From assembly GCF_002900095.1 (NCBI RefSeq), contig NZ_LLKN01000002.1:310001-374000 (forward strand): 64,000 nt of DNA, given 5' to 3'. The position numbers and the translations under genes are program-made. Numbering within the stretch: position 1 is the first letter of the stretch; each line of letters starts with the position of its first letter. The stretch is from Salegentibacter mishustinae. Its GTDB lineage: Bacteria > Bacteroidota > Bacteroidia > Flavobacteriales > Flavobacteriaceae. Positions 2,866 to 33,562 of the stretch are shown here, piece by piece. The notes under the pieces are model-generated. The model was not told where the DNA came from and did no database searches. It was given only the letters and a program-made list of their open reading frames with translations.

Positions 2866-4656
2866 TTAAGGTGTTTCTTCGTAATCTCCTCTAAGCGCGC
2901 GGTACTTTTTGCGGGCTTCCACAAAATAAATACTGTCGGCAAAGTTAAAGATTATTTGCTCGTAATATTCTTTGGCTTTTTCAGGGTTTTCCAGCTCATT
3001 TGCATATAATTCTGCTAAATAATAATGGGCGTTATCAGCCAGAATATCAGCATTAAAATTCTCAATAATTGCAAGATAATTGTCCTCAGCCTTTTCCGGT
3101 TGTCCTGTTTCTTCAAATAGTTGAGCTTGCTTGAGCAAAGCTTCATCTTCTATTTTTTCGCCTTTATGAAGGTTTAAAATTTCTTCAAAAAGTTGAATTG
3201 CTTCTAAATTTTTCTCCTGAAAAGCCAGCAAATCGGCGCGAGCATATTTTTTAAGCGCAGTTTGAGTGGTATCTTCTATAGAATTATCTTCAATAAGCAA
3301 ACTCAGCTCCATCGCGTCATTAGCGATAAGTTGCGAAGTAGAAGATTTTAAAATATCGAGTTGCTGTTTGGCCCATTTAAAATCTCCTTTATAATAGCTG
3401 GTTTTAGCCACTTTAAAACGTGCATTTTGCGAAATTTGGTCGTTTTTTACCAAATTTTGAACCTGGGAATAATAAATAAGGGCTTCGTTAAATTTCTCCT
3501 GAAGCACTAAAATATCTGCAAGCGCCAGTTTAATCATCGCTTTATCAAAATCGCGATTAGCCTGCTCTGAAAGCCTTTTTAATAAGCCGATAGCTTCTTC
3601 CTGCTTATCCTGTTTAAAGGCCAGAAAATTGGCAAAATCTATTTGCAAAGCCAGGGTGTTGAGACCGGTTCCAAACTGCTCCAGCAGTTCAGCATATCTT
3701 TTTTCTACTTCTGCATAGTTTCTCTCATTTTCATTTTTCAGCTGTATTTTTAACAAAAACTGATTTCCTTGTAAAACCAAATTTTCTACAGGTGCTTCTT
3801 GAATTACGTATTCAACAATTTCTGTTGCAGCTTCAAAATCTGAAGCTTCCTTGGCCATAATTGCAAGGTTTAAAATGCTCTGTAAACTTTTATCACTTCT
3901 TCTATAAATAGCTTTTTCCTGCGAAAAGGCTTTTAAAAATTCCTCTTCCTGGGTAAAAAGCCAGCTGAGCATTTCGTTATAAAGCAACCTGGGATTTTTT
4001 TGCAGCTTAGTAAGCAATAACCTTCTGAAAATGGTATTGGCTTCACTTGAAGCATCTGCTGAGATATACTTGCCGAATTCTCGATTGGCGATTGGGAAAA
4101 AGTCGGGATTCGCTTCTATAAGTTCCAGGTAATTCTCAAACATAAGTTCGGTTTTACCCTGTTCCCCGTAAATTCTTGCCAGTTGCATATTAAAGTTTAG
4201 CTCATTATTTAGCTGCATTGCCTTTTCATAGGTTTCTGCAGCATATTTTAGCAAACTATATTTCTGAAAGGTTCTGGCTATGGAATAGGCGTAATTAGGA
4301 CGAGCGTCTACAGCGCTTAAGGCTTCTGCATAGAATTGCTCTGCTCTTTCTGTATTTTGCTGAAGTTCATAATTATGTCCCAACTCTATTAAAAGTGTTG
4401 GATTATTTGCTGAATTATTCAATTTCTGCCGAAGTAATTCTTCTGATCTTTTAAAATTCTCCAGTTGCTGATGACTTTGCACCACCCCGAAAAAATAGGA
4501 AGTATTCTGCGGATTTTCCTCTAGTAATTCCTCGTAGGTTTTAAGCGCTTTCTCAAATTCTCCCTGGTCGAAAAAATTACGCGCCAATACCTCAGATTGC
4601 GCAAGGGCACCTGAAATTGAGCAAATAAAAACGAGAAAAAATAAGACAGAGCGCAT
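2866..4656 (-). CDS. secreted tetratricopeptide repeat protein
   Basis: A 596-residue protein. It has an N-terminal signal peptide (about residues 1-19, ending ALAQ), and almost the whole remainder is TPR-like helical repeats (for example AEQFYAEALSAV, AAETYEKAMQLN and AIQLFEEILNLH). It is expected in the periplasm or on an outer-membrane face, acting as a scaffold for other proteins. No enzyme motif is visible. It begins a run of close-packed minus-strand genes reaching mgtE. Similar tetratricopeptide proteins are common in Flavobacteriia and their partners cannot be told from sequence. Confidence 0.85.
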   Translation of the reverse strand: MRSVLFFLVFICSISGALAQSEVLARNFFDQGEFEKALKTYEELLEENPQNTSYFFGVVQSHQQLENFKRSEELLRQKLNNSANNPTLLIELGHNYELQQNTERAEQFYAEALSAVDARPNYAYSIARTFQKYSLLKYAAETYEKAMQLNNELNFNMQLARIYGEQGKTELMFENYLELIEANPDFFPIANREFGKYISADASSEANTIFRRLLLTKLQKNPRLLYNEMLSWLFTQEEEFLKAFSQEKAIYRRSDKSLQSILNLAIMAKEASDFEAATEIVEYVIQEAPVENLVLQGNQFLLKIQLKNENERNYAEVEKRYAELLEQFGTGLNTLALQIDFANFLAFKQDKQEEAIGLLKRLSEQANRDFDKAMIKLALADILVLQEKFNEALIYYSQVQNLVKNDQISQNARFKVAKTSYYKGDFKWAKQQLDILKSSTSQLIANDAMELSLLIEDNSIEDTTQTALKKYARADLLAFQEKNLEAIQLFEEILNLHKGEKIEDEALLKQAQLFEETGQPEKAEDNYLAIIENFNADILADNAHYYLAELYANELENPEKAKEYYEQIIFNFADSIYFVEARKKYRALRGDYEETP

Positions 4657-11781: not shown

Positions 11782-11863
11782 GCTCGAGTGGCGGAACTGG
11801 TAGACGCGCTGGATTCAAAATCCAGTAACTTCGGTTGTGCGGGTTCGATTCCCGCCTCGAGTA
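11782..11863 (+). tRNA. tRNA-Leu (anticodon CAA)
   Basis: An 82-nt class II tRNA. The acceptor arms are GCTCGAG and CTCGAGT (first pair G-U) with discriminator A. The anticodon stem ctgga/tccag encloses loop ttcaaaa, giving anticodon CAA for UUG codons. A short variable arm and the T arm GCGGG-TTCGATT-CCCGC follow. CCA is not encoded. Its 3' end is the integration site of the island (see the att repeats). Confidence 0.95.
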
Positions 11864-11866
11864 CTT
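11850..11866 (+). repeat. attL-like direct repeat at the tRNA-Leu 3' end
   Basis: tcccgcctcgagtactt here and tcccgcctcgagcactt at 49254-49270 differ at one base. The left copy completes the tRNA. The right copy lacks the rest of a tRNA. This is what a tyrosine recombinase leaves after insertion into a tRNA 3' end. Confidence 0.85.
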
Positions 11867-11886
11867 TTAACATATTAAATTCAATC

Positions 11887-11932
11887 AAAACCCCGTAAAC
11901 TGCACTGTTTACGGGGTTTTTCTTTTTTATTG
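11887..11932 (+). terminator. terminator after the tRNA-Leu
   Basis: A stem with arms AAAACCCCGTAAAC and GTTTACGGGGTTTT and a 6-nt loop is followed by a T-rich tract. It lies inside the island, so it is probably supplied by the element to terminate the tRNA transcript. Confidence 0.9.
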
Positions 11933-12101
11933 ATATCAAATAATATCATTTGAATAGGTATTAAAAGTGTCTCATTCGGTGGCACTTGACAAATTAAAAA
12001 AGGTGCGCCCGAATCGTCGTAAAGTACTGTTAAATAACATATTACAAATGAACTTATTAAATTTTTTAGGCTAAATTTATTTGATTTTAAAACCTAAAAA
12101 G

Positions 12102-13334
12102 ATGCAAGATTTATTTTCAGTATTGTTTTACGTAAGAAAAAGTAAGAATAAAAGTGCTACTCATGCTATGGTTTACCTCAGAATTACATATGAAGGTAAA
12201 CGAGCTGAAGCTAGTACAATGAGGAAAGTTAATCTTTCAAAATGGAACGCTAAGGCTAATAAAATGAGTGGTACTTCTGCTGAAGCCAAACAAGTAAATC
12301 GGAATCTTGATATCATTAAGAATCGCATCTATGAGATTTATCAGAAATTTTTAGAAAATGGCGAAGAAATAACAGCAGTAAACATTAAAGATGAGTTTCT
12401 CGGTAAAAACAAAGATGACAAAAGAATTCTCAAAATCTTCGAAGATCATAACCTACGAATGGAAAAACTGGTTGATAAAGATTATTCCTTTAGAACACTG
12501 CAACGCTACAAAACCACAAAAAAACATTTAACCAACTTTATATCATCCAGTTATAAAGCCGATGATTTTCGTGTAAAGGATATTGACATTAAATTCATCA
12601 ATAGTTTTATGTATTACCTCAAAACAGAACTTAACCATTCTCATAATTCGGCATTAAAATATTTAGCCTATTTGAAAAAAATTGTTCGAATTGCAGTTGC
12701 TAATGGATGGCTGGAAAAGGATCCTTTTTATAATTTCAAGCAAAAGCGTCAGGTTATTGACCGAGAGTTCTTGACTAAAGAGGAAATCATTAAAATAATG
12801 GAAAAAACTTTTACCATTCAAAGAATGGAACAAGTTAGGGATGCATTTCTGTTCTCTTGTTATACCGGGTGTTCTTATTCCGATATTAAAAAGCTAACTA
12901 AACAGAATATTATTAAAGGAATTGATGGCAGCCAATGGTTAAAGTTTAAAAGAACAAAAACCAGATCCTTAAGCAGCGTTCCTCTTTTAACAGTGCCGGA
13001 AGAGCTTATTAAAAAATATGAGGACTTTGATAATCCTAAAGGAACTTTGTTACCGGTACTATCAAACCAAAAAACGAATGGTTATTTAAAAGAAATAGCT
13101 GATTTATGTGAAATTCAAAAAAAACTAACATTTCATGTTGCCAGGCATACCTTTGCCACCACCGTAACCCTTTCAAATGGAGTACCAATAGAAAGCGTAA
13201 GCAAAATGCTTGGGCATAGATCTATAAAAATTACTCAACACTACGCAAAAGTATTAGATGAAAAATTAAGCGAGGATATGAATAATTTGAAAAACCGAAT
13301 GGCGGCTAGTGAAAATAAAAGAAAGCTTAAATAG
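12102..13334 (+). CDS. tyrosine recombinase (IntDOT-like integrase of the island)
   Basis: Catalyses site-specific integration and excision, here presumably at the tRNA-Leu end. It has an N-terminal arm-binding domain (about residues 1-95: FSVLFYVRKSK, then VYLRITYEGKRAEAST), a SAM-like core-binding domain (about 100-205) and a catalytic domain with HVARHTFA, LGHRSIKITQHY and the tyrosine in that last motif. At the position of the first catalytic Arg (normally TGLR) it has CYTGCSYSDI, without Arg. As I recall, CTnDOT-type Bacteroidota integrases share this feature. I chose the ATG at 12102 (410 aa). An upstream in-frame TTG at 12081 is possible. Together with the tRNA-end repeats this identifies the island's own integrase. 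Confidence 0.92.
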   Translation: MQDLFSVLFYVRKSKNKSATHAMVYLRITYEGKRAEASTMRKVNLSKWNAKANKMSGTSAEAKQVNRNLDIIKNRIYEIYQKFLENGEEITAVNIKDEFLGKNKDDKRILKIFEDHNLRMEKLVDKDYSFRTLQRYKTTKKHLTNFISSSYKADDFRVKDIDIKFINSFMYYLKTELNHSHNSALKYLAYLKKIVRIAVANGWLEKDPFYNFKQKRQVIDREFLTKEEIIKIMEKTFTIQRMEQVRDAFLFSCYTGCSYSDIKKLTKQNIIKGIDGSQWLKFKRTKTRSLSSVPLLTVPEELIKKYEDFDNPKGTLLPVLSNQKTNGYLKEIADLCEIQKKLTFHVARHTFATTVTLSNGVPIESVSKMLGHRSIKITQHYAKVLDEKLSEDMNNLKNRMAASENKRKLK

Positions 13335-15978: not shown

Positions 15979-17727
15979 TTACCAACCCGGGTTTTGCTCT
16001 AAATTGTCATTTAACTCAAGATCTTCCATCGGTATTGGGTAATAATAATCTCTATTTTCATCGAAGCTTCCGCCCTCGAATAAAAGCAGGTTTCCTGAAT
16101 TACCTTCTGTAAGGGGTCTTTCATTAATATTTATGGTGGAAGTTACTTCATCTGGCGCCCCGGAAGTATCTCCATCGTGAACATATACATCAAAATTGCC
16201 ATCATTATTAAAATCATGAGCACCTAATTCTGAAAAATATATACCCCTTATTGGTTTTTCAACTTTATTGCCTTCTTTCCATCTCATAAGATCATCCCAG
16301 CGCAGCCCTTCGTTTACCATCTCGACTCTTCGTTCACGACGAATTTCCAGGATCACCCCTTTGTTTGGTCCTTCAATATTCTCATAAAGGCTTTCCTGAT
16401 AAGGGTCGGGATTAGCATTCGCTTCCGCCATATTCAAATGTGGCAAACCTACACGATCACGTAATTTATTAATTGACATATCTAAATCGCCCTGTGTCAA
16501 TGTCCCAATTTCTGCCTTGGCCTCAGCATAAATTAACAATGCCTCTGCATATCGGAAAAGTATAACATCATTAAATGAACCACCCGAACCCCATTGCGGA
16601 CCTTTAGGAGGTAATCCTTTTATCACTCTGTAGCCTGTTCTGGTTATGTCTAAATCTACCGGCTCAGGATCCTGCGACCCATAGGTTGCAAAATCAGGTC
16701 CTGCTGTAGTTTGTGTCAACCTGGGATCCCGATTTTGCATCTCTTCATAAAAACTCAGTGTTTCATAGCCAGATTGATTGGTAAACGGTGTTCCGTCAGT
16801 CATTAAATAACTATTGACCAGTTCTTTTGTAAGCCCCCATCTTCCTTGGGTTGGTGCAGTCATCCTATAAGCCAGATCGTGTGTTCTTAATCCAAATTCA
16901 TAATCCACAGCTAAAATAGTTTCAGTGGTATTCTGATTTTCCATTGCAAACAGGTCTAGATATGCCTGCTCTTCACCGCCACTAGTATAAAGGGTGTAAG
17001 CGCCCGAATCCATCAATTCCTTTGCTGCAGATGAAGATTCTTCTATAAATCTTTCATAATCATCCAAGCCATGATATTTTCTAAATGTTCCTTCATGAAG
17101 AGCAATTCTAGCTTTTAATATAAGTGCCGTATATTTTGTTATACGATTTAATTCCTTTTCAGCCGGAATATTTTCAATGGCATAATCAATATCGGCCATA
17201 ATGGAATCCATTACTAATTCTCGTGAATCCCTTGCTTTAGTTAATAATTCTTCATCATCCTGATTTATCACTTCACTATACCATGGTACATCTCCAAACC
17301 TCTTTACTTTTTCGAAATAGAAGTAAGCCCTAAAAAATCGCGCTATTCCGGAGTATTTGGCTGTGGCGCCAGGATCATCTACCCTATCATAATTCTCTAA
17401 AAAATAGTTGATCCTTCTTAGATAGCCCCAGGACCATCCACCGCTACCCCTGTCTGTAGGGACAATACGTGCTCCTCTTAATCTTTCACCAGCACTTACC
17501 CCTAAAATATTGTCTGAGTCGGAATCATCTATATACACAGATTTTGTTGGGAGAACGGCATACAAATCATTCGTATATGCCTCTAAATCGGCACCTGTGT
17601 TGAAAAATTCTTCTGCAGTTACTGCATCACCAGGTGGTTGTTCGAGTATATCGGCCTCACAACCTGCAATTATAAACGGTGTGATCAGTAATACCAATAC
17701 TTGAATTATTCTTCGTGTTTTTTTCAT
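15979..17727 (-). CDS. susD: SusD/RagB-family outer-membrane nutrient-binding lipoprotein
   Basis: Surface lipoprotein that captures substrate for the SusC-like channel. At 582 aa it has a lipoprotein signal (LLITPFIIAGC, Cys at about 22), N-terminal TPR-like helices, and the typical C-terminal region with NDVILFRYAEALLIYAEAKA and RRERRVEMVNEGLRWDDLMRW. It follows the susC homologue by 63 bases. The name gives family membership only: the accompanying phosphoesterases suggest a phosphodiester ligand rather than starch. Confidence 0.93.
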   Translation of the reverse strand: MKKTRRIIQVLVLLITPFIIAGCEADILEQPPGDAVTAEEFFNTGADLEAYTNDLYAVLPTKSVYIDDSDSDNILGVSAGERLRGARIVPTDRGSGGWSWGYLRRINYFLENYDRVDDPGATAKYSGIARFFRAYFYFEKVKRFGDVPWYSEVINQDDEELLTKARDSRELVMDSIMADIDYAIENIPAEKELNRITKYTALILKARIALHEGTFRKYHGLDDYERFIEESSSAAKELMDSGAYTLYTSGGEEQAYLDLFAMENQNTTETILAVDYEFGLRTHDLAYRMTAPTQGRWGLTKELVNSYLMTDGTPFTNQSGYETLSFYEEMQNRDPRLTQTTAGPDFATYGSQDPEPVDLDITRTGYRVIKGLPPKGPQWGSGGSFNDVILFRYAEALLIYAEAKAEIGTLTQGDLDMSINKLRDRVGLPHLNMAEANANPDPYQESLYENIEGPNKGVILEIRRERRVEMVNEGLRWDDLMRWKEGNKVEKPIRGIYFSELGAHDFNNDGNFDVYVHDGDTSGAPDEVTSTININERPLTEGNSGNLLLFEGGSFDENRDYYYPIPMEDLELNDNLEQNPGW

Positions 17728-17790
17728 TTTTTTATATTTATCACTATTAGTGTATCTGTTTTTACAATCTTCTAAAATTTATAAAGCAAA

Positions 17791-20700
17791 TTATAGATTG
17801 ATTTGAATACCTGCAGAATAAGTCTTCCCCATTGGGTATAATTGTGTGTTTGTAGCAGATCTTCCACTCACACCATTTGGGTTAGAGTAACTAACATGTG
17901 CTCCTACCTCTTCGGGGTCTAGGTATTTAGTTAAACCTCCAAAAGTCCAGGTGAATATGTTCTCGCCGCTCACAAAAAAACGAAGTCTTTTAATATTAAT
18001 TTTCTTAGTAAGGGTGGGTGGAATGGTATAACCCACAGTAAGATTTTTAATCCTGAGATAGCCTATGTTTTCTAAAAAGTGGTCATTATAGTTATATGAC
18101 ATACGGCCATTACTTAAAGCGCTGTAGGCTCTTTGTCTCTGAGGGAATATTCTATTGGGATCGTTAGGTTGAGCCGGATCCCATACCTGATTTAAAAGAT
18201 CTTTTCTTATAAAAGATGTATATGGTCTATGAAATGTAGCCCAATATAAAGGACCGTTTGGGTACCAATCCTGTTTGGCGACTCCTTGTCCAATAACGTT
18301 CAGGTCAAAGTTTTTCCACGAAGCATTTATATTAAATCCGAATGGAAACTGTGGCATTGCATTACCAATAGGCACTAGATCTCCAGGGTCTTCAAGGGTA
18401 TTATTTCCATTATCAATACTACCATCCCCATCAGTATCTACATATCTAAGATCTCCCCCTCGCAAGCGGTTCCAATCACTATTTGATCCGTAATCAAGTA
18501 TCCCTCTATAAACTCTAAAGAGGTTATCTCTTCCATATTCATTTTGGAAGGCGGCGGCTTCTTCGTCTGATTGAAATTGACCATCTACCCGATAACCCCA
18601 TATTTCACCTATTTGCTGACCTTCCCAAAAGGTGCTTAATAAACCGTTTGGGTTATCAAATTTTGTAATTATAGCTTGGTTATTTGAAACATTGGCTTGT
18701 GCACTAAGGGCTAGTTTAGAACCTAACACATTAAATTCATCATTATAACCTAAGGTCGCCTCAAATCCTCTGTTCCGCATTGCTGCGTAATTTCTACGAG
18801 GTTCTGATGCACCAAAAACTGCGGGAAGCGGTTGTCCCGGTAGATACATATCCCGTGTATTACGTTCATACCATTCAACAGAGGCAGTTAGTTTATCCTC
18901 TAGAAATCCCATATCAACACCTACATTTGTTGATGTGATTTTTTCCCAGCCAATATTAGCCGGTAATGGAGAAGGTACTCTGGCATAATTACCCTGTTCT
19001 CCATCAAATAACCACGAGGTTCTACCCATTCCTATTAGTTGCCTGAAGGTATTTACCCCTACATTCTGATTCCCTAATTTACCATAGGATGCTTTAAGCT
19101 TTAATGAGGATATTGCGCTTTCTAATGGTGTCCAAAAATTTTCTTTATCAATTATCCAACCTGCGCCTACAGATGGAAAAAGCCCCCATCGGTTTTCTTC
19201 TGGGAAGCGCGATGAACCATCGTAACGCGCGTTAACTTCCAATATGTATTTGCCATCATAATCATAGTTAAATCGTCCAAAATAGCCTTGAATAGCCCAT
19301 TCTAATGTGGAACCTTCCATATCAAGCATTGTTGTTCCAAAAGCAATATTAGCTTTGTCCTGGGTGAGCAGGTCTTCAATTCTCATTCCCACTCTATCAC
19401 GGTCAAACTCCTCCTGGTTAAAACCGAGCATTAGCTTGAAATTATGCTTTTCTGCAATGTCCCTGGTATAGGTTCCATAAATGTTTATAGTAGTATAATT
19501 ATCCTTCCAGCGATACTCATTATGTCTATTTAATCCTTGCCCTTCTAACAACTCCAGCTTTTCACCAGCCAGATAACTAAATGGCTTATAGGAAAATGTG
19601 CGATCTGTCCGATCAATACTATAATTATAATTCATATTAAGTACTAATCCCTCGATTGGCTTAAGCTCTGCTCCAAGGGTATTAGTTAAATTTTCATACT
19701 GCCATTGCCGGTGTGCAGCGCCTTCTTTTAAGGCACCTAAACGTCCAACATATCCATTCCTGGTTCGACCAACACTTACACCATAGCCGTCAACGAAGGC
19801 AGGATGATTAGGAAAAAGATCACGCCATTTACTCACCCCAAATTCGTCACCCCAACCATTTTTAGTTCCTGCATATTGTTCATCATACCTACTACTAAAT
19901 CTGCTCAATGCATTTAACTTTAACCAGTTGTATGGAGTCGCACTCAGTTTAAGCTGTAGATTATAGCGTCTCATCTCAGCATCCTGGATATTTTGAATTT
20001 TTTCACGCTCATAGCTTCTTGCTGAGATAATACCGGTTAATTTATCAGAGCCACCAGAAACAGAGATATTATTTATTTGGTGTGACCTACGATCTTTAAA
20101 CAAGACATCATAGAAATCGGTATTTCCAAAAAACTTATAGGTGCCATCCGGTTGTTGCTCATAAAAAGGTTCTCTTTCACCATTACCAACTTGTTCGGCA
20201 ATTTCCCAATCATCATCTTCATAACATACATAACAACCGCTATGATATGAGCCAATTGCATCATCGACCCATCTTGCATAGGTAGCTGGATTAGTTACAA
20301 AGTCAGTACGAGCAATATTTGTAGTAAAACCAGTATTGTTAGAGTACTGAACATTAAATTCACCTGCCTCTCCAGATTTAGTAGTGATTAGCACCACTCC
20401 AAAAGAACCTCGTGCCCCATAAATTGCTGCCGCTCCAGCATCTTTTAAAACAGTTACACTTTCAATGTCATTTGGATTTATATTGGCAATATCCGCTTCT
20501 ATACCATCTACGATAATAAGAGGAGACCCTCCATTTATAGAATTAAAACCACGAATATTTATTTCGGGAGTTTCGGAAGGATCACCACCTGATGACGACC
20601 TAATATTCAAACCGGGTACAGTTCCCTGCAGAGAACTGGCTATATCTGCCGATGGTCGAGTTACAACGTCGCCAATCTCTGCGGTACTAACCGAATTAAC

Positions 20701-21108
20701 AACATTTTCTGATTTTTGAGTACCGTAACCCACAACCACAACTTCGTTGAGGCTTTCTGAATCCGGAACCATTGTTATTTCAAACGTGGATTGAGACTCA
20801 ACAGTAACTTCTTTTGACTTATATCCTAAAAAAGAAAAAACAAGAATTGCGTCCTGGTCCGGTACTCTTAAGGTAAACTCTCCATCAAAATTAGTGATTG
20901 TTCCTTTAGAAGATCCTTTAATTTGTACAGTTACTCCCGGCAAAGGCAATCCGGTTTCATCCAGAACTTTTCCTTGAATAGTTTGTTGAAAATCAACAGA
21001 TTCAAGGATTGTCCCCGGATTAAAATTGGAAGCAAAAGCTTCCGAGAAAATCAATAGAAAGCATATGACATATACTTTCTTTAAAAAAAATTGTATTTTT
21101 GTGTCCAT
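17791..21108 (-). CDS. susC: SusC/RagA-family TonB-linked outer-membrane transporter
   Basis: TonB-dependent channel that imports the substrate bound by SusD. It has 1105 residues: signal peptide (about 1-26), carboxypeptidase-regulatory-like domain (about 44-112, GKVLDETGLPLPGVTVQIKG), plug domain with NEVVVVGYGTQKS and PLIIVDGIEADIANINPNDI, and a long beta-barrel ending with an aromatic-rich strand (YSAGIQINL). It is intact and is the first gene of a four-gene operon with susD, metallophosphoesterase and GDPD. No TAnnTTTG element is obvious just upstream, and the leader contains a strong hairpin (21148-21174). Such pairs are often driven by ECF sigma factors. Confidence 0.95.
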   Translation of the reverse strand: MDTKIQFFLKKVYVICFLLIFSEAFASNFNPGTILESVDFQQTIQGKVLDETGLPLPGVTVQIKGSSKGTITNFDGEFTLRVPDQDAILVFSFLGYKSKEVTVESQSTFEITMVPDSESLNEVVVVGYGTQKSENVVNSVSTAEIGDVVTRPSADIASSLQGTVPGLNIRSSSGGDPSETPEINIRGFNSINGGSPLIIVDGIEADIANINPNDIESVTVLKDAGAAAIYGARGSFGVVLITTKSGEAGEFNVQYSNNTGFTTNIARTDFVTNPATYARWVDDAIGSYHSGCYVCYEDDDWEIAEQVGNGEREPFYEQQPDGTYKFFGNTDFYDVLFKDRRSHQINNISVSGGSDKLTGIISARSYEREKIQNIQDAEMRRYNLQLKLSATPYNWLKLNALSRFSSRYDEQYAGTKNGWGDEFGVSKWRDLFPNHPAFVDGYGVSVGRTRNGYVGRLGALKEGAAHRQWQYENLTNTLGAELKPIEGLVLNMNYNYSIDRTDRTFSYKPFSYLAGEKLELLEGQGLNRHNEYRWKDNYTTINIYGTYTRDIAEKHNFKLMLGFNQEEFDRDRVGMRIEDLLTQDKANIAFGTTMLDMEGSTLEWAIQGYFGRFNYDYDGKYILEVNARYDGSSRFPEENRWGLFPSVGAGWIIDKENFWTPLESAISSLKLKASYGKLGNQNVGVNTFRQLIGMGRTSWLFDGEQGNYARVPSPLPANIGWEKITSTNVGVDMGFLEDKLTASVEWYERNTRDMYLPGQPLPAVFGASEPRRNYAAMRNRGFEATLGYNDEFNVLGSKLALSAQANVSNNQAIITKFDNPNGLLSTFWEGQQIGEIWGYRVDGQFQSDEEAAAFQNEYGRDNLFRVYRGILDYGSNSDWNRLRGGDLRYVDTDGDGSIDNGNNTLEDPGDLVPIGNAMPQFPFGFNINASWKNFDLNVIGQGVAKQDWYPNGPLYWATFHRPYTSFIRKDLLNQVWDPAQPNDPNRIFPQRQRAYSALSNGRMSYNYNDHFLENIGYLRIKNLTVGYTIPPTLTKKINIKRLRFFVSGENIFTWTFGGLTKYLDPEEVGAHVSYSNPNGVSGRSATNTQLYPMGKTYSAGIQINL

Positions 21109-30924: not shown

Positions 30925-31020
30925 TTCTAATGAAATTAAGAGATACCCACGCGTTGTATATGCTAAGCGCATTTAGTGAGTGAAATGTTCAGCTCACCTT
31001 GCGGGTGTACAAGCACCCTC
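30925..31020 (-). ncRNA. candidate guide RNA scaffold of the dCas12f system
   Basis: Right after the dCas12f stop, the minus strand holds three consecutive hairpins: GGGTG/CACCC (31018-31003), GTGAG/CTCAC (30997-30976) and GCGC..GCG with a bulge (30970-30951). Together they are clearly GC-richer than the surroundings. The last hairpin contains GCATATACAAC, which resembles the 3' end of a Cas12f-type repeat. A guide would then read roughly GCGTGGGTATCTCTTAATTT from about 30953. The scaffold and position are seen directly. The exact ends, promoter and guide start are inference. A further hairpin (CTTACTA/TAGTAAG) lies at 30860-30877. Confidence 0.55.
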
Positions 31021-31029
31021 GAAAATATT

Positions 31030-32130
31030 TTAACCAATGATCAGTTCAATACCGGCTTTTTCGGCCTTGTATTTTATTTTGGTCATTAGATCATAATAGC
31101 CCCAGTTTCTTAGCACAAATGCTTCCTCTTTGGCGAGTTCAATTTTTTGCTCCTGGTCTACTAAAATGAGCGTTCCTGCCTGGTGTTTTACGCAGAAATC
31201 TATTAGTTCTCGGCTGTATACGTGCAGTCGCTGGTTCACATAATTGCGTTCCTTATCTTTAAACCTGGCTGCCGCTTTTGTTTTCCGTTTATGCCCATTA
31301 CCAGACCTGGCATACTTCACACCCTCCCGGGTTCTTCTTCTGGCGGCTTGTATAGCCAACCTCCGATATAGAAATTCTTCCCTGCTCCCTATGCTAAGCT
31401 TTGCCTTACCAATTTTCACTATAATTGGATACTCCAGGGACAACCTGGCTTCTGCAAACACCTCTGGCCTTAGTTGGTGTTTTTCTTTCTCCATTTCAAA
31501 GGCGGCCATCATAAAGATCTTACCATCTTTTAACTTGAGATAAGAAGTGCGCATTTTAATCTCGCCCTTTGTTAACTGGTGCATTAATTTCCATTTGTCA
31601 TTAAATGCTCTGCCGATATAGGTTTTTACCGGGATGGAAAAGAACCGAAAGCAAAAGGCACTTTTCTCAGGATTGAATTCCAGCCCACAAACACCCTCCA
31701 TGGTAAAGGGAAAGGCCATTTCTTTTTTGAAATTTTGCAGGGAACGCTCGCCTTTCCAGTATTCCTCCCGGTTTTTCTTAAAGGAACTTTGAATGATGCT
31801 ATTGAGTTGGGATAAAATGTTGGTGGGCATTTTCCCTTTATAGCGATCAGATACCAACCGGTAGGTGGTATTCATCCGCGACCGGTTAAAGATACCCAGT
31901 TCATCTTTTTTCTCGTCCACCAGCTTATACTTCACCCCTTCTGATAGATAGAAAAACTCCTGGATCATTTCCTGAACATATAGATGGGAAACGATAAGGT
32001 TCGCAGCTTTATGACAGCGGTAACGCCATTGGTACAGTTTACTTTTAGCCTCCTGGCGTTCTTCCTGGGTTGGCAGGTCGATCTCTAACCGGATACTACG
32101 GGTGAGTGTAATTGTGTCCTTTCCCATCAC
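31030..32130 (-). CDS. dcas12f: nuclease-dead Cas12f/TnpB-like RNA-guided protein
   Basis: A 366-residue TnpB/Cas12f homologue. N-terminal recognition region (1-215) has QWRYRCHKAANLI and IQSSFKKNREEYWKG. The RuvC half has the arginine-rich bridge region (255-300: RRLAIQAARRR, KDKERNYVNQRLHVYSRELI) and the family's final helix WGYYDLMTKIKYKAEKAGIEL. The RuvC-I Asp is replaced (IIVKIGKAK, Lys239). The RuvC-II Glu is replaced (TLILVDQ, Val324). The protein stops at GIELIIG, before the zinc ribbon and RuvC-III Asp. It therefore cannot cut DNA but may still bind RNA and DNA. The start is GTG at 32130 or ATG at 32127, overlapping the sigma gene stop (TAGTGATG). Translational coupling suggests a complex with that sigma factor. 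Confidence 0.85.
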   Translation of the reverse strand: MMGKDTITLTRSIRLEIDLPTQEERQEAKSKLYQWRYRCHKAANLIVSHLYVQEMIQEFFYLSEGVKYKLVDEKKDELGIFNRSRMNTTYRLVSDRYKGKMPTNILSQLNSIIQSSFKKNREEYWKGERSLQNFKKEMAFPFTMEGVCGLEFNPEKSAFCFRFFSIPVKTYIGRAFNDKWKLMHQLTKGEIKMRTSYLKLKDGKIFMMAAFEMEKEKHQLRPEVFAEARLSLEYPIIVKIGKAKLSIGSREEFLYRRLAIQAARRRTREGVKYARSGNGHKRKTKAAARFKDKERNYVNQRLHVYSRELIDFCVKHQAGTLILVDQEQKIELAKEEAFVLRNWGYYDLMTKIKYKAEKAGIELIIG

Positions 32131-32912
32131 TAAGCCGATTGTTGTTGTTCGTGTTTTAATTGCATCAGCTTATAGGCGGACATAAATTCCTGGTGCACTT
32201 CCTTTTCGGAAAGGTTCAATTCTTTGGCAATAGCTGCAAAGGAGTATTGTCTTTCCGTGCGCAGCTGCAAGACCTTTTCCTGTTCCTGGGTCATCTCCCT
32301 CTGAATCTTTACTGCCAGAACTGGTTTTGGTTTTGTTTCCTGAATACTCCGCTGGCAAATGATATTTTTAATATCCACGATAGCCTTTTTTACCTCGTTG
32401 CTGGTGTGGGTAATACTGGTTCCCATTAATTGACCAATAGCTTTATAGCGAAAATCATACTTTAAACAGAGTTCAATCAGGCGTCGTCTTTCAGGACTGA
32501 GTAAGGGTAAAACACGACTTATCCGGTCAAAAGCTTTTTGTTGAATCTCGTGATTTAATAAGTGCAGATCATCTTTTTCTGGATCATAACCGTGCAAATA
32601 CTCCTGGTAGTTTTCGAAACTTTCTAAGGAATTGACGGTTTTGAAAAATTTATTTTTAGGACGAACATAGTAGGTGTAGCATTCCCTCTTCATTACCATT
32701 CGTAGGAAATAGTAAATATGTTCGGGTCGTTCTATCCGATCCCTTTTCTCCCATAGTATTAGAAAGGTATCCTGCACCAGGGTTTCCACGGCAAAATCAT
32801 CATCCAGAATTTGCTTGCCCACCCAGAAGATATTGCGGTGGTACTTTGTATGGATAAACTCCAAGGCATCGGGATGTCCTTGTTGTAATAATTCAAAAAT
32901 ACGCTGTAACAT
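32130..32912 (-). CDS. ECF-type RNA polymerase sigma factor with extra C-terminal HTH, partner of dCas12f
   Basis: A 260-residue sigma-70-family protein. Region 2 is about 15-85 (ALEFIHTKYHRNIFWVGKQI, VQDTFLILWEKRD, MKRECYTYYVRPKN). Region 4 is about 130-190 (LPLLSPERRRLIELCLKYDF, then YKAIGQLMGTSITHTSNEVK). After that comes an additional segment (about 205-255) that again looks like a region 4-type HTH (MTQEQEKVLQLRTERQYSF, then AAIAKELNLSEKEVHQEF). Usual ECF factors stop near 180-200 residues, so the extension is unusual and could contact dCas12f. No anti-sigma gene is adjacent. The gene ends inside the dCas12f start, so the two are made together. Confidence 0.85.
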   Translation of the reverse strand: MLQRIFELLQQGHPDALEFIHTKYHRNIFWVGKQILDDDFAVETLVQDTFLILWEKRDRIERPEHIYYFLRMVMKRECYTYYVRPKNKFFKTVNSLESFENYQEYLHGYDPEKDDLHLLNHEIQQKAFDRISRVLPLLSPERRRLIELCLKYDFRYKAIGQLMGTSITHTSNEVKKAIVDIKNIICQRSIQETKPKPVLAVKIQREMTQEQEKVLQLRTERQYSFAAIAKELNLSEKEVHQEFMSAYKLMQLKHEQQQSA

Positions 32913-33071
32913 AAGCAGTCGCTTTTAAGTGGAGGTAACAACCTCAAGGTTTTAAATGGATTAGCTTAAGCGAATTCCTACAAGTTGTAAAGAGAAGGTA
33001 GCTTTGAAAGTAAGTCGAAAAAGAAAGGGCATGAGACTTAACTTATTGTATCAGAGGTACTGGTATACCAT

Positions 33072-33129
33072 GGAACGACAAGTAAGCTCACGCCCGGGTC
33101 GTGAGCATTACCACTTATCATCTCGTTCC
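33072..33129. other. long imperfect hairpin upstream of the sigma-dCas12f operon
   Basis: Outer arms GGAACGA/TCGTTCC, middle AAGT-AA/TTACCACTT with a 2-3 base bulge, and a perfect inner stem GCTCACG/CGTGAGC with loop CCCGGGT. It is preceded by palindrome TGGTATACCA (33061-33070). It could be a leader structure, a small RNA or an alternative guide scaffold. A 72-codon frame across it (33004-33222) is judged spurious. Confidence 0.55.
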
Positions 33130-33240
33130 TTAAAAATTACCAGTTTTCTGACACAAGATTCAAAGCGAATGCTTCTAATATTTTACTTAAAGAAGTTTCG
33201 CAAATATATTAATATGAGATAAATATATAAATAAAATATT

Positions 33241-33307: not shown

Positions 33308-33562
33308 ATGCAGAACAAAAATTACAAAGAAGACTTTTTACTTAAGTTTGGAGAGAATTTCGGCAAGATTCGGCGGAGTAAAAGTTTAAGTTTTAGATCC
33401 TTATCGCAAAAATGCGATATAGATTATGCAGATCTAAACAAAATTGAAAGAGGAAAGAGAAATATTACGCTTACCACTATAATTGAGTTAGCAAGAGGAC
33501 TTGATATTCACGCTCGAGAATTATTTGATTTTAGCTTTACTCTAAAAGATTTGGAAAAATAA
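33308..33562 (+). CDS. XRE-family helix-turn-helix regulator
   Basis: A small DNA-binding protein (84 residues from the ATG at 33308; an in-frame TTG at 33278 would add ten residues). The HTH_3 core is FGENFGKIRRSKSLSFRSLS, then CDIDYADLNKIERGKRNITL and TTIIELARGLDI. It is divergent from the sigma-dCas12f operon and lies just before the cassette array. It may control either, but the sequence does not say which. Confidence 0.85.
   Translation: MQNKNYKEDFLLKFGENFGKIRRSKSLSFRSLSQKCDIDYADLNKIERGKRNITLTTIIELARGLDIHARELFDFSFTLKDLEK

What the first reader, a model, noticed from the sequence alone, without database searches (positions are those of the whole stretch)
31030..32912. Nuclease-dead Cas12f homologue coupled to an ECF sigma factor: a likely RNA-guided transcription system
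Seen: the Cas12f/TnpB-like protein lacks the RuvC-I Asp (Lys239), lacks the RuvC-II Glu (Val324), and ends before RuvC-III and the zinc ribbon, yet keeps the bridge region and the W..YDLMTKIKYKAEKAGIEL helix. Its start overlaps the stop of a sigma factor gene (TAGTGATG). Known: I recall recent reports that dCas12f and sigma-E pairs in Bacteroidota activate promoters chosen by a guide RNA, often at SusCD loci. Inferred: this operon is such a system, carried on a mobile island that also holds a SusCD operon.
Basis: partly seen in the sequence, partly recalled or inferred. Interest (0 to 1): 0.95.

Follow-up and report, generated by a model that had tools for sequence, protein, structure and literature searches.

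The report
RNA-guided sigma factor gene switch
This stretch encodes a dead CRISPR-type protein, its sigma-factor partner and a guide RNA, a known kind of machine in which a small RNA chooses where RNA polymerase starts; relatives suggest that it aims at a conserved, self-terminating RNA leader in front of nutrient-uptake operons and of its own operon.

Summary
The host is a Salegentibacter. The protein and sigma factor match over their full length the dCas12f and RpoE of PDB 9n9c/9n9q, the latter titled 'RNA-guided transcription complex'. All of about 43 intact homologues have the sigma gene upstream, and dCas12f is under strong purifying selection (dN/dS 0.04-0.05). Most guides in relatives are variants of GCGTGGGCTCTCTTAT. 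About half of those tested match, at 13-15 of 16 positions, one site in a roughly 150-nt leader element absent from Rfam. That leader precedes SusC genes and sigma-dcas12f operons, beside a divergent HTH gene; this genome has two copies. It can form two competing folds, both supported by covariation, one a terminator-like hairpin whose 5' arm is the site. I infer that dCas12f-sigma starts transcription inside the leader and bypasses termination. Weak point: this strain's own guide matches its leaders only over a 7-nt seed plus a bulge. The SusCD operon in the window has no leader. New member of a known kind, with a possibly new target logic.

The parts
32130..32912 (-). ECF sigma factor gene (260 aa): sigma2, sigma4 and an extra C-terminal sigma4-like HTH
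   Evidence: Pfam/NCBIfam sigma-70 hits; 9n9q chain C RpoE E 1.8e-89; AlphaFold domains, Foldseek top hit 9n9q_C
31030..32127 (-). nuclease-dead Cas12f gene (365 aa from the ATG)
   Evidence: 9n9c 'Nuclease-deactivated Cas12f' E 1.2e-163; catalytic residues lost in all homologues; dN/dS 0.04-0.05; Foldseek top hits 9n9m/9n9c
30953..31020 (-). guide RNA scaffold, three hairpins, ends GCATATACAAC
   Evidence: conserved after dcas12f in all loci; consensus fold with compensatory changes; covariance model R1 hit
30937..30952 (-). guide, about 16 nt shown: GCGTGGGTATCTCTTA (true 3' end unknown)
   Evidence: variable segment directly after the scaffold; in relatives guide-site similarity ends after 16-18 nt
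33016..33168 (-). structured leader element with two competing folds, upstream of the sigma-dcas12f operon
   Evidence: covariance model R2 hit, E 1.9e-35; 17 of 38 long-hairpin pairs with two-sided changes; alternative terminator fold
33078..33093 (-). target-like site in the own leader, GCGTGAGCTTACTTGT, preceded by G
   Evidence: same position as the guide-matching site of other leaders; match to the own guide is weak
33017..33046 (-). 3' arm of the terminator-like hairpin followed by a T-rich tract (CTTTCTTTTTC)
   Evidence: alternative fold, 92.9% of cells paired; positions
33201..33208 (-). TATATTTG, Bacteroidota-type -7 box (TAnnTTTG) upstream of the leader
   Evidence: TAnnTTTG at a near-fixed distance in 56 of 61 leaders, 4% in shuffles
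33308..33562 (+). divergent XRE/Cro-type HTH gene (84 aa) that accompanies the leader
   Evidence: Pfam HTH_3 E 7e-8; small HTH gene beside most leaders

Best explanation
An RNA-guided transcription operon. A nuclease-dead Cas12f and an ECF sigma factor, made from one operon, form a complex with the guide RNA encoded just downstream of dcas12f. The guide pairs with DNA beside a 5'-G motif, and the bound sigma factor recruits RNA polymerase there. The natural target of the family is a structured leader in front of SusC-type TonB-receptor operons and of the sigma-dcas12f operon itself. The leader has its own conserved promoter box and can end in a terminator-like hairpin. The guide covers the 5' arm of that hairpin, so an RNA started downstream of the R-loop could not form it and would read into susCD (activation) or sigma-dcas12f (positive feedback). 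Shown by computation: genes, homology to the solved complex, linkage, guide RNA, leader, both folds, guide-site match in relatives. Inferred: binding, transcription start, terminator bypass. For this strain the target is inferred from the family, since its own guide matches the site only over a 7-nt seed. Membership in the RNA-guided transcription family I hold at about 0.93; leader as the family's main target 0.8; terminator bypass as the mode 0.45.
For: Full-length matches to 9n9c/9n9q; sigma upstream of dCas12f in all about 43 intact loci; dN/dS 0.04-0.05; conserved gRNA scaffold with compensatory changes, two strong copies in this genome, one per dCas12f. Leader: covariation of the long hairpin and of the terminator fold, near-equal energies, promoter box in 56 of 61. 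In the genus, 16 of 30 A-type guides match an own-genome leader at the same site with 13-15 of 16, while 18 other guides do not exceed shuffles; self matches 16/16 in L053 and L035, 15/16 in L049, L050, L052. Leaders in 18 of 19 family genomes with dCas12f against 51 of 378 without.
Against: The window's own guide does not match its leaders better than shuffles when aligned without gaps and no other target was found in the genome. The leader also occurs in about 51 genomes without dCas12f, so it has a function of its own. sigma-dcas12f operons often carry a leader, which builds in part of the co-occurrence. The second guide type (CCTTCCC) addresses something else; where its motif occurs upstream of other sigma operons it lies in a hairpin without a T-run. 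The window's T-tract is imperfect, and the simple terminator scan did not list this long-looped hairpin. No expression or binding data.
Confidence: 0.75

Rival explanations
1. Same machine, different target: this strain's two guides address other sites (elsewhere in the genome, or on a phage or plasmid), and the resemblance of the window guide to the leader is ancestral or partly decayed.
For: Own guide fits its leaders only over 7 nt plus a bulge; the paralogue's guide TTTGTGCCCTATTATT has no leader match and no other site with up to 2 mismatches in the genome.
Against: The guide keeps the family seed GCGTGGG and the CTCTTA end; near relatives share its register, and one relative's leader carries an extra base in the same place. 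Searches with up to 3 mismatches found nearly only sites inside genes.
Confidence: 0.25
2. dCas12f bound in the leader acts as a roadblock (repressor) on the leader transcript rather than as an activator, in the manner of TldR proteins.
For: The site lies about 110 nt downstream of the leader's own promoter box, in the path of RNA polymerase.
Against: Every intact locus keeps the sigma gene, and the solved relative is an RNA polymerase-recruiting complex with this sigma.
Confidence: 0.1
3. The gRNA acts on the leader RNA: its guide mimics the 5' terminator arm and pairs with the 3' arm, preventing termination (antitermination in trans).
For: The guide sequence equals the terminator's 5' arm, so it could pair with the 3' arm.
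Against: Guides resemble the 5' arm more closely than the complement of the 3' arm (the best matches are nearly all on the + strand at the site); Cas12f relatives bind DNA; no role is left for the sigma factor.
Confidence: 0.05
4. A decaying IS605 TnpB remnant beside an unrelated sigma gene.
For: Weak matches to TnpB profiles.
Against: Low dN/dS, open frames of constant length across many genera, invariant sigma linkage, far closer match to 9n9c.
Confidence: 0.01

Closest known systems
dCas12f-sigma-E RNA-guided transcription system (PDB 9n9c, 9n9m, 9n9o, 9n9q; recalled as the Flagellimonas taeanensis system)
   Same: Full-length homologous dCas12f and RpoE, guide RNA next to the operon, loss of the same catalytic residues
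   Different: Sequence divergence (about two thirds identical dCas12f, just over half sigma); whether the leader, self-targeting and gRNA series were described there could not be checked
TldR (TnpB-like nuclease-dead repressors)
   Same: Nuclease-dead relatives of RNA-guided nucleases turned into RNA-guided regulators (PMC13418256)
   Different: Different lineage (this one is closest to Cas12f), fixed sigma partner, expected activation instead of repression
Type V-F CRISPR-Cas12f nucleases
   Same: Shared ancestry and fold
   Different: Single gRNA unit instead of a CRISPR array, no catalytic site, no zinc ribbon

Membership tests
dCas12f-sigma-E RNA-guided transcription system | Full-length homology to the dCas12f of the solved complex, with the RuvC catalytic residues lost | tested here: met
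   (E 1.2e-163)
dCas12f-sigma-E RNA-guided transcription system | Adjacent ECF sigma gene homologous to the sigma of the solved complex | tested here: met
dCas12f-sigma-E RNA-guided transcription system | Guide RNA encoded beside the operon | tested here: met
   (conserved structured scaffold; RNA binding itself not tested)
dCas12f-sigma-E RNA-guided transcription system | Guide matches a genomic target beside a 5'-G motif, upstream of a gene | tested here: inconclusive
   Met in relatives; for the window's own guide only a 7-nt seed plus bulge. The 5'-G motif is recalled from memory.
dCas12f-sigma-E RNA-guided transcription system | dCas12f-dependent recruitment of sigma and RNA polymerase, with start sites set by distance from the R-loop | not testable with these tools
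   needs ChIP-seq and 5'-end mapping
TldR | TnpB-derived RNA-guided repressor without a sigma partner | tested here: not met
   closest to dCas12f 9n9c, sigma always linked
CRISPR-Cas12f (type V-F) | Active RuvC nuclease and CRISPR array | tested here: not met
   No catalytic residues; single gRNA unit, only two strong scaffold copies in the genome

The most novel reading that the evidence does not exclude
RNA-guided transcription used as an attenuator bypass: across Flavobacteriaceae, dCas12f-sigma complexes aim at the 5' terminator arm of a bistable leader RNA that stands in front of TonB-receptor operons (many in genomes without dCas12f) and of their own operon, so that guide-placed initiation skips termination and builds a positive feedback switch over surface nutrient receptors.
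Probability: 0.45. Interest if true: 0.78.

Novelty: new member of a known kind. Interest (0 to 1): 0.62.

Why it matters
It ties a recently solved RNA-guided transcription machine to a concrete natural target class: a conserved two-state leader RNA in front of SusCD operons and of the machine's own genes. That gives testable predictions (binding site, start site relative to the hairpin, autoregulation) and a covariance model with which to find targets in many genomes. The leader, not in Rfam and present in about a sixth of the Flavobacteriaceae genomes sampled, is of interest in its own right.

Tried and rejected
Searched the own genome for the window guide (up to 3 mismatches): no convincing intergenic site; nearly all hits fall inside genes. 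Same for the second paralogue's guide. Looked for the target upstream of the window SusCD operon by reading the region and scanning the window with up to 5 mismatches of 20: none, and R2 finds no leader there. Looked for divergent dCas12f in leader-positive genomes counted as negative: one remnant, plus the known remnant genome G390 that was included. Sought a second att copy of the tRNA end in the window: none of 14 nt or more. AlphaFold of dCas12f with 18 sequences was poor (pLDDT 60), so it is used only as support. No match in plasmids. The primary papers are not in the library. Rejected: TnpB remnant; CRISPR locus.

Full report
What is there. On the minus strand, 32912-32130 encodes a 260-aa ECF sigma factor and 32127-31030 a 365-aa Cas12f-like protein; the junction is TAGTGATG. 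By sequence, the best solved relatives are 9n9c 'Nuclease-deactivated Cas12f' (E 1.2e-163, all 365 residues) and 9n9q chain C 'RpoE' (E 1.8e-89). Foldseek names 9n9c 'dCas12f-gRNA complex', 9n9m 'dCas12f-gRNA-DNA complex (partial R-Loop)' and 9n9q 'RNA-guided transcription complex', all released 2025-12-24. The RuvC-I Asp of an active Cas12f aligns with Arg229, the RuvC-II Glu lies in a short deletion, and the chain ends before RuvC-III and the zinc ribbon; 18 homologues share this.

Relatives. Named relatives place the genome in Salegentibacter. The own genome has a second copy (67% identical, contig 1). Intact copies occur in 10 of 15 genus genomes, up to five per genome, with remnants only in two more, and this clade is found in 19 of 397 sampled family genomes. 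In every intact copy (about 43 distinct loci) the sigma gene lies upstream, adjacent in all but one, where about 150 nt with a gRNA-like unit intervene. dN/dS is 0.041-0.053 for dCas12f and 0.045-0.106 for sigma where dS could be estimated. The genes flanking the cassette differ between the three relatives whose flanks I listed, and no window neighbour is shared as a whole gene with the eleven loci compared, so only the cassette is shared.

Guide RNA. Downstream of the dcas12f stop in all loci there is a conserved element of about 64-72 nt ending GCATATACAAC, followed by variable sequence. It folds into three hairpins; 5 of 17 consensus pairs show two-sided changes, and the window copy folds better than shuffles (z -3.1). 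Model R1 finds exactly two strong copies in this genome, one per dCas12f, and copies in the same 12 of 15 genus genomes that have dCas12f sequence. Several relatives carry two to four gRNAs in series, some following duplicated 3' ends of dcas12f. Of 78 distinct gRNAs, 47 have guides of one type (GCGTGGGCTCTCTTAT-like) by a simple rule, and a few of the rest are near variants of it; 16 are of a second type (CCTTCCC).

Target. The A-type guide sequence occurs elsewhere in the genus about 470-640 nt upstream of SusC-type TonB receptor genes, and about 180-200 nt upstream of sigma-dcas12f operons. It sits inside a roughly 150-nt element, usually beside a small divergent HTH gene. The own genome has two such elements: window 33168-33016 and G000:C2:1288716-1288566 in front of a SusC-SusD-M16 peptidase operon. 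In the genus, 16 of 30 A-type guides match an own-genome leader at the site with 13-15 of 16, against about 10 expected from shuffles; the 18 other guides serve as negative controls and show no excess. In other genera, L053 and L035 match their own leader 16/16 and L049, L050 and L052 15/16, and similarity stops after 16-18 nt. The own guide, GCGTGGGTATCTCTTA, is the weak point: it shares the 7-nt seed and then fits only with one bulged base, and statistically it does not exceed shuffles. Its nearest relatives share that register. One relative's leader has an extra base in the same place (GGCGTGGGCTTTACTTA).

The leader. Aligned over 25 copies, a long hairpin has 38 pairs, 96.5% of cells paired and 17 pairs with two-sided changes, far above slid and shuffled controls. 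A competing fold pairs the site (5' arm) with ATAAGTTGAGTCTCCACGCC, followed by a T-run; 92.9% of cells pair and covariation exceeds the controls on most measures (one pair was entered one column off, which lowers the figure). The two folds are close in energy (window: -45.7 and -43.3 kcal/mol). A TAnnTTTG box stands at a near-fixed place upstream in 56 of 61 leaders against 4% in shuffles. No Rfam family matches at its gathering score. Leaders are found in 69 of 397 family genomes: 18 of 19 genomes with dCas12f and 51 of 378 without (Fisher p 4.5e-14, not corrected for relatedness). A profile search found no divergent dCas12f in those 51, apart from one short remnant. In genomes without dCas12f many leaders also precede TonB receptors with an HTH neighbour. 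The leader is thus an independent control element at which the dCas12f system is aimed. A caution: because sigma-dcas12f operons often carry a leader themselves, part of the co-occurrence is built in. Some sigma-dcas12f operons have other upstream regions.

How it most likely works. Shown by computation: proteins, linkage, guide RNA, leader, folds, guide-site match in relatives. From memory, not verified here: the solved system starts transcription at a set distance from the R-loop, beside a minimal 5'-G motif. Inferred: dCas12f-gRNA-sigma opens the leader at the 5' terminator arm and starts RNA downstream of it, so the terminator cannot form and susCD, or sigma-dcas12f itself, is transcribed. 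For guides that begin GCGTGGG, the base just 5' of the site is G in nearly all leaders seen.

Verdict. A new member of a known kind. The possible new content is the target logic (leader bypass and autoregulation), which I could not compare with the primary papers because they are not in the library.

Noticed in passing
L213 (IMGVR_UViG_3300031998_005371), 3004-4128: A viral contig encodes a 374-aa relative of this dCas12f (33% identical), a little upstream of a gene that looks like a phage portal, with no sigma gene recognised among the ORFs within 3 kb.
   Followed up: partly
G000:C1:318391-319479 (L002, L004): Second sigma-dcas12f-gRNA cassette in the same genome, with a different guide (TTTGTGCCCTATTATTTTG) and no target with up to 2 mismatches in the genome.
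   Followed up: partly
L009, L010, L019 against L006: Sigma genes are about as close to the window's (83-87%) whether the linked dCas12f is 91% or about 70% identical, which suggests exchange of sigma and dCas12f halves between cassettes.
   Followed up: no
L014, L029, L055, L056, L020: Two to four gRNAs in series after dcas12f, some following repeated copies of the dcas12f 3' end, so guides seem to multiply by tandem duplication.
   Followed up: partly
window 15979-21108: SusCD operon next to metallophosphoesterase-like and glycerophosphodiester phosphodiesterase-like genes, without the leader element upstream.
   Followed up: yes
window 11782-13334: tRNA-Leu next to a tyrosine integrase gene, as at the edge of an integrated element; no second copy of the tRNA end in the window.
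   Followed up: partly
L039, L040, L046, L056, L063, upstream of sigma: A second kind of hairpin (GCCTTCCC...GGGAAGGC-like) upstream of other sigma-dcas12f operons resembles the second guide type CCTTCCC, again at the 5' arm of a hairpin.
   Followed up: partly
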